Shown here in pieces: positions 2,335 to 5,137 of a stretch of DNA of 5,137 bases; position 1 is the first letter of the stretch; each line of letters opens with the position of its first letter. Location of the stretch: NCBI GenBank assembly GCA_016209155.1, contig JACQWU010000031.1:1-5137 (forward strand), given 5' to 3'. The position numbers and the translations under genes were made by a program. Under the pieces are notes generated by a model. It was not told the origin of the DNA, made no database searches, and saw only the letters and a program-made list of their open reading frames with translations. This DNA is from Candidatus Desantisiibacteriota bacterium (GTDB lineage Bacteria; JACRDZ01).

Positions 2335-3345
2335 TTATATTTCCTGCCAATATACCACAGAAATTTGCACTTTTGAATCTCTTCGCAGTACTGCGTATAT
2401 TTCAGTTGAAATATTATTAATTGTACCTATTGAATGTATATAAAAAAACCCCGCACTTTTAAATGCTATAGATTTAGAAATACGTCCAAGTATTTCATTG
2501 GTCATCCCTGTCACAGATTTTAATTCTTCTTTTGAATTAAATGGCTTTTCTTTTCTTTTATTAATAACAGATTCCGCTATATCTTTATTTAAATCCAGAT
2601 CCAAAGCCATAATAATTTCAGCAGGCGCTGTATTTAAATTTATTTGATGACTTCCATAAATAGTAATGAAGTCCTTTAACCCTACACGCATAACAAGGGA
2701 ATCTTCTTCGTTTTTTTTGTTTTCATTTGTTCCAAAATAAGTCTCTTCAGTAAAGCCTTTCAGCAAAAATAATTCTCTTATAGTATCAAGAGGCGCATTT
2801 TTACATATATATGGAGGTGCCATGCTCTTATAATCACTATTTTCAGCACCGCCTGATTCTTTCTGATTTTCAAAAATGGTTACTTGATCATCCTTGTCAA
2901 TCCAGTCTATCAGCGCATCAACAAATTTATAATCCTGATTATTAATTTCACATAATCGTTTTAAATTATCAACAGCAGTATTATAAACTTTTTCCTGAGC
3001 TGTCCCTGAATGAAGAACAACAGCATTGACATTAATTTTACTACTTTCATCAATAATATTCAATTTTAAATTTCCGTTTTTAAACATTACGGCTGAAATT
3101 ATTTTCGAATAATCTTTTGCCCAGTCTTCGCTAAGATCATCAATTTCAGGATCATCAGCTTTAAGTGCATATTTGGCAAACTCAATACCGGAACGTGCAA
3201 TCGCATATGTTTCGAGTTTATCTTGATAATTTTTGGCGATTTCAAGCTCAACCCGTACATTTTGCGCAAATTCAAGTATTATTACTGCAAGTATGGCGGT
3301 AACTATAAGCGTGAGAATAAGTGCTACTCCGTTTTCATCATTCAT
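2335..3345 (-). CDS. gspK: T2SS minor pseudopilin GspK
   Basis: A 336-residue protein, the largest pseudopilin as expected for GspK. ATG at 3345 follows the gspJ TAA by 2 bases; GGAG is visible only about 17 bases upstream, so coupling is likely. The leader MNDENG precedes VALILTLIVTAILAVIILEF; no Glu at +5, which is the family norm. Diagnostic segments follow: KINVNAV (about residues 103-109), FVDALIDWIDKDD (about 142-154), then GGAENSDYKSMAPPYICKNA leading into PLDTIRELFLLKGF, and INLNTAPAEIIMAL (about 235-249). A helix-hairpin-helix-like region follows (ESVINKRKEKPFNSKEELKS). GspK caps the pseudopilus tip and its inserted alpha domain limits filament extension. The family binds calcium through acidic residues in the DWIDxDD region. 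The six-residue acidic leader is unusual. Confidence 0.93.
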   Translation of the reverse strand: MNDENGVALILTLIVTAILAVIILEFAQNVRVELEIAKNYQDKLETYAIARSGIEFAKYALKADDPEIDDLSEDWAKDYSKIISAVMFKNGNLKLNIIDESSKINVNAVVLHSGTAQEKVYNTAVDNLKRLCEINNQDYKFVDALIDWIDKDDQVTIFENQKESGGAENSDYKSMAPPYICKNAPLDTIRELFLLKGFTEETYFGTNENKKNEEDSLVMRVGLKDFITIYGSHQINLNTAPAEIIMALDLDLNKDIAESVINKRKEKPFNSKEELKSVTGMTNEILGRISKSIAFKSAGFFYIHSIGTINNISTEIYAVLRRDSKVQISVVYWQEI

Positions 3346-3347
3346 CT

Positions 3348-3983
3348 TTATTTTATTATCTCCGCCAATGGGATAGATACTATTGTCGAAAATGAATATT
3401 CATTTTTATTTGTATCATCCATGAAGGTAATTGCGATTTCAACCATTTTGGGGAGTATCCCCTTGCTATTTGTGTCCCATGAATCAATCCATTCTTCCTT
3501 ATCATAATAACGGAAATTTAATCCTTTTATATTCTGCCCTAAAATTTGTTCATATCCTCCGTTTTCTATATTATCATCAACTGTCCCTGAGTAGCGGCGA
3601 ATAAGGTTTCCCGAGCTTGTATTTTCACCATATTTAATGTAATAGCCAATTTCCATTAAATCACTTTCATTAACATCGGATTTATAGGGATTTAATGTGC
3701 TTATAAAATTTAGTTGGTCACTGTCATTATTATCATTTTTCCCATCATCACCTTTAAAACGTATTAAAATATTCTGTTGGGAAAAAAAAGCTGAGCTTAT
3801 TTCCTTTTCCATCTTGTTTAATATAACACGTGATTCTTGTGATGAGTCTATTCTTGATTTACTTTTTTCAATAGCTTTGCTTGTATTGGAAAAAGTAAAA
3901 TAAATTATAAAAACAACAATCCCAACTATACTGCTTGCAACTAAAATTTCTATTAAAGTAAACCCTTTTTCATCTAAATCCAT
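3348..3983 (-). CDS. gspJ: T2SS minor pseudopilin GspJ
   Basis: A 211-residue protein. I start it at ATG 3983 because AAGGA lies five bases upstream and the leader MDLDEKG is then seven residues long. An in-frame GTG at 4019 would add 12 residues encoded by the inverted repeat upstream. Cleavage is predicted after Gly7, giving FTLIEILVASSIVGIVVFII with Glu at +5. The mature part has a helical stretch (about residues 30-65, rich in Ser/Lys/Glu) and then a beta-rich domain. That domain includes a region read as IGYYIKYGE and a final strand region, EYSFSTIVSIPLAEIIK, as in GspJ proteins of about 200 residues. GspJ joins GspI and GspK in the tip complex. The leader is acidic (two Asp, one Glu, one Lys) rather than the usual basic leader. 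The stop is 2 bases before the gspK start. Confidence 0.88.
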   Translation of the reverse strand: MDLDEKGFTLIEILVASSIVGIVVFIIYFTFSNTSKAIEKSKSRIDSSQESRVILNKMEKEISSAFFSQQNILIRFKGDDGKNDNNDSDQLNFISTLNPYKSDVNESDLMEIGYYIKYGENTSSGNLIRRYSGTVDDNIENGGYEQILGQNIKGLNFRYYDKEEWIDSWDTNSKGILPKMVEIAITFMDDTNKNEYSFSTIVSIPLAEIIK

Positions 3984-4090: not shown

Positions 4091-4468
4091 TTACTTTGCT
4101 TTGTAAAAAGTAACTTTATTTGAGTTCCCATCCGGAGATGAAACTGTTAGTTCGATTTTCCGGACTCCGTCAATACCAAATTCACTCGCATTTTCTACCC
4201 ATTTATAACCCGGGTAATTTTCGAAATCTCCGGACTTTGTTCCTGTTTCAGGATAATCGCTTATTTCAATTTCACTTAATCTACTTTTGGTTAAAAAAGT
4301 CAGCTTTGTAAGTGTTGAAGACCGGTTAAGAGACATAAGATTGAATACATTAAGCTGTAAGAATACAATAAAAACAATTGCAATAATACACACTGCAATA
4401 AGAACTTCAAGCAGAGTGAAGCCTTTATTTTTTTTAAATATTTGATAAAAAAAGTGAAGATTAAAAAT
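4091..4468 (-). CDS. gspI: T2SS minor pseudopilin GspI (non-canonical start)
   Basis: The reading frame encodes KKNKG followed by FTLLEVLIAVCIIAIVFIVF, a textbook prepilin peptidase site (cleavage after Gly, Phe at +1, Glu at +5) and membrane helix. After it comes a short soluble domain with GDFENYPGYKWVENA, typical of GspI. The first ATG/GTG/TTG in frame within the open frame is GTG at 4393, inside the helix; starting there would delete the processing signal, so I reject it. Upstream, the frame is open to TAA at 4489-4487 with no standard start. Candidates are ATT at 4468 (AAGGGG nine bases before it; coordinates given here, 125 residues), ATT at 4474 (overlapping the gspH TAA), or ATA at 4441. 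The ATA would give a seven-residue leader like that of gspJ and is one base from ATG. GspI forms the tip complex with GspJ and GspK. Function is certain; the start is not. Confidence 0.85.
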   Translation of the reverse strand: MFNLHFFYQIFKKNKGFTLLEVLIAVCIIAIVFIVFLQLNVFNLMSLNRSSTLTKLTFLTKSRLSEIEISDYPETGTKSGDFENYPGYKWVENASEFGIDGVRKIELTVSSPDGNSNKVTFYKAK

Positions 4469-4469
4469 T

Positions 4470-4976
4470 TTAATAAACCCCTTTCTTTACATATTTATCA
4501 AAAATAGAAACTTTGCCTGATATGGAATTTGTAATCAGTGAAAAATTTTTATCTTTTCTGTCTGTAATATGAATAATCACGCTATCCATATAGCCCAAAT
4601 ACGTAAATCTTATTTCTCCTATCCCATTATTAACCGTAAAATTATCCGCTTGAGTGATTATATCCTTAAAAAACACACCTTCAGGAAGGAGAATTTTGCT
4701 TTTTATTTCTCTCCATTCTCCTTCCTTATATGAAAATACACTGTAAGAATTTGCATTTGTAAAATCAATTTCAATTTTATATGACGTCTTGCTTAATACT
4801 GATTGATTAAAATAGTAATTGATTTCACCTGAAAATTTACGGGCAAAACTACTGAGATTCTGAACTGCAAAAAAATCCATCCGCGGCAAAGCAATACTTG
4901 TAATAATTGCCATTATAAAAACTGTCATTAATACTTCTATTAAAGTTAATCCTTTACTATTTGTATATGTATTCAT
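4470..4976 (-). CDS. gspH: T2SS minor pseudopilin GspH
   Basis: A 168-residue protein starting with ATG 3 bases after the gspG stop (TAA TCA ATG), so translation is probably coupled; a weak GGA lies about 7 bases upstream. The leader MNTYTNSKG is followed by LTLIEVLMTVFIMAIITSIALP, a class III prepilin signal. Cleavage is predicted after Gly9, with Leu rather than Phe at +1 and Glu at +5, followed by the hydrophobic helix to about residue 31. The rest is a soluble domain rich in beta strands. It has the spaced aromatic/Gly pattern of GspH (for example LLPEGVFFKD near residue 98 and GIGEIRFTYLGYMDS near 118). Length fits the family. GspH sits near the pseudopilus tip. Identity as GspH rather than another minor pseudopilin rests on position between gspG and gspI and on length, since this subunit is poorly conserved. 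Its stop overlaps the possible start zone of gspI. Confidence 0.85.
   Translation of the reverse strand: MNTYTNSKGLTLIEVLMTVFIMAIITSIALPRMDFFAVQNLSSFARKFSGEINYYFNQSVLSKTSYKIEIDFTNANSYSVFSYKEGEWREIKSKILLPEGVFFKDIITQADNFTVNNGIGEIRFTYLGYMDSVIIHITDRKDKNFSLITNSISGKVSIFDKYVKKGVY
4478..4483 (-). promoter_or_regulatory. Possible Shine-Dalgarno of gspI
   Basis: AAGGGG on the minus strand, inside the last codons of gspH, lies 3 bases before ATT 4474 and 9 bases before ATT 4468. It is the only purine-rich ribosome-like site in front of the gspI prepilin signal. It therefore supports initiation in this area even though no ATG, GTG or TTG is available in frame. Confidence 0.45.
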
Positions 4977-4979
4977 TGA

Positions 4980-5137
4980 TTATTCCGAACTCCAGCTATT
5001 AATATCCTTAGCATCACCTTCCCCGCCTTCCTGCCCGTCTTTTCCATAACTTAAAATATCATAGTCGGGATTATTAACTCCGGGAGAAACATAAAGATAT
5101 GGGTTCCCCCATGGATCATTCGGGATTTCCTTTTTCC
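4980..5137 (-). CDS. gspG: T2SS major pseudopilin GspG, C-terminal fragment
   Basis: This is the last 51 codons of a gene whose 5' part lies beyond the right edge; it ends in TAA at 4982-4980. The translation contains DPWGNPYLYVSPG, then DILSYGKDGQEGGEG, then DINSWSSE. The DPWGxPY...DxxSxGxDGxxGGEG...DIxxW pattern is the signature of the GspG C-terminal lobe. In studied homologues the acidic loop after this motif binds calcium and stabilises the major pseudopilin. GspG is processed by the prepilin peptidase and polymerises in the inner membrane into the periplasmic pseudopilus that drives substrates through the outer-membrane secretin. The gene lies 3 bases upstream of gspH, the usual order. 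The N-terminal prepilin signal cannot be seen. A type IV pilin is unlikely because this C-terminal motif is specific to T2SS major pseudopilins. Confidence 0.93.
   Translation of the reverse strand, partial: KKEIPNDPWGNPYLYVSPGVNNPDYDILSYGKDGQEGGEGDAKDINSWSSE

What the first reader, a model, noticed from the sequence alone, without database searches (positions are those of the whole stretch)
4391..4492. gspI has no standard start codon in front of its prepilin signal
The gspI frame carries a perfect KG/FTLLEVLIA processing site, but between that site and the upstream in-frame TAA (4489-4487) there is no ATG, GTG or TTG. The available near-cognate codons are ATT 4474, ATT 4468 (AAGGGG nine bases upstream) and ATA 4441. 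The ATA would give a seven-residue leader and differs from ATG by one base. An ATG at 4492 is in frame but is followed at once by TAA. Either the gene uses a rare AUU/AUA start, perhaps to keep this tip subunit scarce, or a point mutation or assembly error removed the start. Automatic callers will choose GTG 4393 and lose the signal.
Basis: partly seen in the sequence, partly recalled or inferred. Interest (0 to 1): 0.6.

Follow-up and report, generated by a model that had tools for sequence, protein, structure and literature searches.

The report
Secretion gene lacking standard start codon
In this draft genome of an uncultured bacterium, the gene for one small part of a protein-export machine (gspI) has no ordinary start codon; it may begin at the rare codon AUU, as a handful of known bacterial genes do, but with no close relatives or raw reads a mutation or an assembly mistake cannot be excluded.

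Summary
In the gspI frame (minus strand) no ATG, GTG or TTG lies between the in-frame TAA (4489-4487) and the prepilin site KG/FTLLEV. None occurs in any frame over that stretch, so a single small indel cannot recover a start. Among 313 other pilin-like genes only two lacked a standard start: one a repeat frameshift, one probably not a real pilin gene. ATT 4468 is the best-supported start. It lies 1 nt after the gspH stop and has AAAGGGG at good spacing (-7.2 kcal/mol, stronger than about 73% of this genome's genes). The same genome's infC starts at ATC with a similar layout, so near-cognate initiation exists here. Against this, the implied 16-residue leader is more hydrophobic than every control, near-cognate starts are not enriched genome-wide, and about 2% of sampled genes look frame-broken, so a lost start is credible. 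No relative close enough to test conservation is held. Verdict: a real anomaly, probably SD-assisted, gspH-coupled AUU initiation (about 45%), or a lost or misassembled start (about 35%).

The parts
4983..5137 (-). gspG (major pseudopilin), 3' end only, cut by the contig edge
   Evidence: PF08334 T2SSG 2.1e-17; TIGR01710 3.4e-14
4470..4976 (-). gspH, ATG 4976, stop TAA 4472-4470
   Evidence: TIGR01708 9.4e-8, below its cut-off; N_methyl 3.5e-6; position between gspG and gspI
4478..4484 (-). SD-like AAAGGGG inside the end of gspH, 9 nt before ATT 4468
   Evidence: -7.2 kcal/mol in a fixed register with ACCUCCUUU, aligned spacing 6-7 nt; -7.6 in free duplex, stronger than 73% of this genome's genes, 2.9% of random coding positions as strong
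4466..4468 (-). ATT, best-supported candidate start of gspI, 1 nt after the gspH stop; leader MFNLHFFYQIFKKNKG (16 residues)
   Evidence: predicted unpaired in an RNA hairpin loop
4472..4474 (-). ATT overlapping the gspH stop by one base; alternative start with too short an SD spacing
   Evidence: aligned spacing 1 nt
4439..4441 (-).
   Evidence: no pairing with the anti-SD
4091..4468 (-). gspI reading frame from ATT 4468 to its stop; signal GFTLLEV cleaved between 4421 and 4420
   Evidence: N_methyl 6.2e-7; TIGR01707 gspI is the best NCBIfam match, 33.9 bits against a cut-off of 44.35
4390..4520 (-). predicted RNA hairpin across the gspH/gspI junction, SD largely paired, ATT 4468 in the loop (weak evidence)
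   Evidence: z -2.55 for 4510-4400; z -2.6 and -3.6 for 111 and 141 nt; 3-5% of control windows as extreme as -2.4
3348..3983 (-). gspJ, ATG 3983
   Evidence: T2SSJ 1.9e-10; TIGR01711 3.9e-10
2335..3345 (-). gspK, ATG 3345
   Evidence: NF037980 5.5e-46, above its cut-off; T2SSK_1st 1.3e-18

Best explanation
gspI is an intact minor-pseudopilin gene translated from the near-cognate codon AUU at 4468, decoded by initiator fMet-tRNA. Ribosomes finishing gspH at UAA 4472-4470 stop one nucleotide before it. The AAAGGGG in the last codons of gspH would hold the 30S subunit in register to reinitiate. Prepilin peptidase then removes the 16-residue leader after KNKG. By analogy with other AUU starts, initiation should be inefficient (around a tenth of AUG) and sensitive to IF3. 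Shown here: no standard start; the SD and its spacing; the tight gspH-gspI junction; a near-cognate (ATC) infC start in the same genome, read from sequence; a prepilin peptidase gene. Inferred: that AUU is used, coupling, IF3 sensitivity, any benefit.
For: No standard start in any frame. SD of -7.2 kcal/mol at aligned spacing 6-7, where this genome's genes centre on 4-5; a random codon has so strong an SD in register about 1% of the time (159 of 14705). The same genome's infC begins ATC (ISKELLINNMIRAKTV) with AGGAGGU at the same 9-nt gap. In about 45 T2SS loci with a measurable junction, gspI usually starts at -8 to +13 nt of the gspH stop, most often -4; ATT 4468 is at +1, ATA 4441 at +28. 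Leaders of 12-19 residues are common. The frame is intact for 110 codons past the signal and matches GspI relatives. Precedents: AUU cvfC1, AUA ccpN and AUA infC in S. aureus, all with extended SDs, with the tested sites at about 10% of AUG (PMC13009471); GTC sigR and ATT/ATC infC (PMC5472188).
Against: The leader FNLHFFYQIFKKNKG is 47% hydrophobic, above all 109 control leaders of 12 or more residues and all 52 from AT-rich loci (maximum 45%). The codons between 4468 and 4441 look non-coding. ATT/ATC/ATA with strong SDs are no commoner than other codons across about 374 kb of the genome. About 6 of 256 sampled genes look frame-broken, so a damaged or misassembled start is credible. No relative tests conservation. 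The 16S tail is missing from the assembly, so the anti-SD is assumed.
Confidence: 0.45

Rival explanations
1. The start was lost: a substitution, a larger deletion or misjoin, or a wrong consensus base removed a normal start. Either the gene is newly inactivated or the deposited sequence is wrong here.
For: The draft genome (352 contigs, 79% complete) has several frame-broken genes: a 28-bp tandem duplication in nnrD, broken secF and others, about 6 of 256. A CRISPR-like array in the same genome runs straight into a phage head gene, a possible misjoin. The stretch is very AT-rich. The leader from 4441 (MFKKNKG) would be an ordinary pseudopilin leader.
Against: No single small indel can restore a standard start. 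A lost start does not explain the SD at correct spacing before ATT 4468. The rest of the gene and the operon are intact.
Confidence: 0.35
2. Initiation at AUA 4441 giving the typical 7-residue leader MFKKNKG, without an SD.
For: Leader length, charge and hydrophobicity are typical; codons upstream look non-coding.
Against: No anti-SD pairing at all; all AUU/AUA starts described in PMC13009471 have strong SDs; predicted to be base-paired.
Confidence: 0.1
3. AUU 4474, overlapping the gspH stop, is used by direct reinitiation.
For: Overlap of stop and start resembles the common -4 ATGA junction of other gspH-gspI pairs.
Against: SD spacing is only 1 nt.
Confidence: 0.05
4. A +1 frameshift near the end of gspH (GGGG run) makes a GspH-GspI fusion that prepilin peptidase cleaves internally.
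For: gspH and the gspI frame overlap over 4486-4470 with a GGGG run.
Against: No known strong +1 signal; the GspI signal would sit inside a fusion after a periplasmic domain, where prepilin peptidase should not reach it from the cytoplasmic side (inference).
Confidence: 0.03

Closest known systems
infC (IF3) AUU/AUC/AUA starts
   Same: Near-cognate start with an SD at workable spacing; this genome's own infC starts ATC with the same 9-nt gap after the SD.
   Different: infC has a stronger SD (-10.8 against -7.2), near-cognate starts in many bacteria, and a known autoregulatory role; nothing comparable is shown for gspI.
S. aureus cvfC1 (AUU) and ccpN (AUA) (PMC13009471)
   Same: Rare AUU/AUA start aided by an SD.
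   Different: Those are mapped by ribosome profiling and conserved; gspI is a secretion component predicted from one draft genome.
Streptomyces sigR GTC start (PMC5472188)
   Same: Near-cognate first codon within an operon, mis-called by annotation, expected to be IF3-repressed.
   Different: sigR was shown experimentally and uses GTC.
GspI pseudopilin (TIGR01707) in gspGHIJK operons
   Same: Gene order, N-terminal signal, length and sequence profile.
   Different: Every gspI frame found in the 80 T2SS loci holds a standard start upstream of its signal, though in a few it lies more than 30 codons away.

Membership tests
GspI minor pseudopilin | Prepilin N-terminal cleavage/methylation signal G/FxxxE with hydrophobic helix | tested here: met
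   PF07963 6.2e-7 above cut-off; TIGR02532 24.1 bits against 16.3
GspI minor pseudopilin | GspI profile TIGR01707 | tested here: inconclusive
   Best match, 3.3e-8, 33.9 bits, below the 44.35 cut-off
GspI minor pseudopilin | Lies between gspH and gspJ in a gspGHIJK cluster | tested here: met
GspI minor pseudopilin | Prepilin peptidase encoded in the genome | tested here: met
   PF01478 1.8e-21 on G000:C39
Genes with a near-cognate (AUU/AUC/AUA) start | No AUG/GUG/UUG able to give the conserved N-terminus | tested here: met
Genes with a near-cognate (AUU/AUC/AUA) start | Strong SD at proper spacing before the near-cognate codon | tested here: met
   ATT 4468: -7.2 kcal/mol, spacing 6-7. Anti-SD assumed, since no 16S is in the assembly. 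Not met for ATA 4441.
Genes with a near-cognate (AUU/AUC/AUA) start | Conservation of the codon in close relatives | not testable with these tools
   No close relatives held: GspK identities about 26-42%; the phylum has 4 genomes, and in G002 the contigs break between gspH and gspJ
Genes with a near-cognate (AUU/AUC/AUA) start | Initiation shown by N-terminal peptide or ribosome profiling | not testable with these tools
   Needs an experiment

The most novel reading that the evidence does not exclude
A type II secretion operon sets the amount of one tip pseudopilin by an IF3-sensitive AUU start placed one nucleotide after the gspH stop, with its SD inside gspH and possibly masked by a hairpin that gspH translation opens.
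Probability: 0.15. Interest if true: 0.55.

Novelty: new member of a known kind. Interest (0 to 1): 0.33.

Why it matters
Genes with true near-cognate starts are few and are missed by gene callers, which drop or truncate them. If AUU initiation is real here, it would extend the list to a secretion-machine subunit and link pseudopilus assembly to IF3 levels. If not, it is a reminder that N-terminal signals can expose start-codon damage or errors in draft genomes. Either way, automatic annotation would truncate this protein at GTG 4393 and lose its signal.

Tried and rejected
Close relatives: genome-contig scans with GspI (none) and a GspK alignment (80 loci, all about 26-34% identical), viral contigs (none), phylum search and the G002 contigs gave no usable ortholog junction. 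A cysS gene that seemed to start at ATA has an ATG immediately before it, so it is ordinary. Genome-wide enrichment of ATT/ATC/ATA after strong SDs: none. Small-indel explanation: rejected. L127 gspG and L031 as further start-less pilins: a repeat frameshift and a probable false match. 16S tail for the anti-SD: absent. Papers combining T2SS or pseudopilins with non-canonical starts: none found.

Full report
Observation. The window is one contig (G000:C238) of a 3.08-Mb, 352-contig draft genome, 79% complete. It carries gspG (3' end), gspH, gspI, gspJ and gspK on the minus strand, then an Ig-like (Big_5) protein and an NlpC/P60 protein. The gspI frame opens after TAA 4489-4487 and reaches KG/FTLLEVLIA with no ATG, GTG or TTG. 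There is no ATG, GTG, TTG or CTG in any frame from 4491 to 4424, and frame +2 is open from TAA 4497-4495 with no start either. A single small indel therefore cannot give a normal start; it could only fuse gspI to gspH.

How unusual. I scanned pilin-like N-termini in 66 loci from the window's own and other genomes (84 sites, one of them the window gspI) and in 80 T2SS loci of GTDB genomes (230 sites). Outside the window two of 313 lacked a standard start. L127 gspG has an ATG with GAGGAGG put out of frame by an expanded GGGTTC repeat, and L031 is probably a false match. The window gspI is therefore a real outlier.

Which codon. This genome uses Shine-Dalgarno sites: the best start of each gene has a median anti-SD energy of -6.2 kcal/mol against -2.4 at random coding positions. 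ATT 4468 follows AAAGGGG (4484-4478) by nine bases. The fixed-register energy is -7.2 kcal/mol at an aligned spacing of 6 (7 by the counting), in the stronger quarter or so of the genome. A random codon has so strong an SD in register about 1% of the time; with two or three candidate codons, chance is a few percent. ATT 4474 is too close to the SD. ATA 4441 has no SD at all. The anti-SD is assumed because the assembly holds no 16S.

Internal control. The genome's infC begins ATC AGC AAA GAA (ISKELLINNMIRAKTV) nine bases after AGGAGG, with an energy of -10.8 at an aligned spacing of 7. Near-cognate initiation therefore very probably operates in this organism, as it does for infC in other bacteria (ATT in E. 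coli, ATC in Streptomyces: PMC5472188; AUA in S. aureus: PMC13009471). Across about 374 kb, however, ATT, ATC and ATA do not follow strong SDs more often than other codons do, so it is no general habit.

Junction. In the T2SS loci with a measurable junction, gspI most often starts 4 nt inside the gspH stop, and most lie between -8 and +13. ATT 4468 is at +1 and ATA 4441 at +28. Reinitiation in E. coli falls with intercistronic distance, is helped by an SD and is sensitive to IF3 (PMC2268962). An RNA hairpin is predicted across the junction, with the SD mostly paired and ATT 4468 in the loop (z -2.55; -2.0 to -3.6 depending on window). But 3-5% of control windows are as extreme as -2.4, and the window was chosen after the fact, so this is weak.

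Evidence against. The leader from ATT 4468, FNLHFFYQIFKKNKG, is 47% hydrophobic. All 109 control leaders of 12 or more residues are lower, as are all 52 from AT-rich loci (maximum 45%). Its codons look non-coding. The leader from ATA 4441 is ordinary. The genome also holds broken genes: by my reading about six of 256 sampled show a frameshift or loss near the N-terminus, including nnrD with a 28-bp tandem duplication. A CRISPR-like array running into a phage head gene looks like a possible misjoin. A lost or misread start is therefore a serious rival.

What could not be tested. No genome close enough to test conservation is held. GspI and GspK relatives are at about 26-42% identity, the phylum has four genomes, and in G002 the contigs end between gspH and gspJ. 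Raw reads are not available.

Weighing. The SD, spacing and junction favour AUU 4468. The leader composition and the state of the assembly favour a lost start. I put AUU 4468 at 0.45, a lost or misassembled start at 0.35, AUA at 0.10 and the rest at about 0.10; these are judgements, not computed posteriors. If AUU initiation is real, this is a new member of a known, rare kind. The idea that it serves to keep the tip subunit scarce is untested, and gspI starts elsewhere are not weaker than those of neighbouring genes.

Noticed in passing
L066 (G000:C275), infC near locus position 1725, minus strand: infC starts at ATC with AGGAGGTG nine bases upstream and would be mis-called at TTG or ATG downstream.
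   Followed up: yes
L147 (G000:C1), 6351-7370 minus strand: nnrD-like frame broken by an exact 28-bp tandem duplication (AAAAAATAAATACACAAATTTTTCTTCG twice) near the NnrE/NnrD join.
   Followed up: partly
L170:17160-17609 (+); L182:6330-7028 (-); L179:2595-3581 (+); L175:9797-10132 (+); L174:356-805 (-): Coding frames with no standard start whose N-terminal parts lie in another frame or are missing (e.g. a secF-like gene), suggesting decay or assembly errors in this draft genome.
   Followed up: partly
L185 (G000:C39), 1-400: CRISPR-like array (six repeats of about 36 nt ending GGATTGAAAC, spacing 71-74) whose last repeat runs directly into a Mu-type phage head gene; possible spacer-to-protospacer misassembly.
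   Followed up: partly
L127, positions about 1430-1600 and pilin genes downstream: T2SS pilin genes in a MAG labelled Klebsiella pneumoniae have long N-terminal extensions made of simple repeats (GGGTTC, CTCGAAA), one of which frameshifts gspG; the organism label looks doubtful.
   Followed up: no
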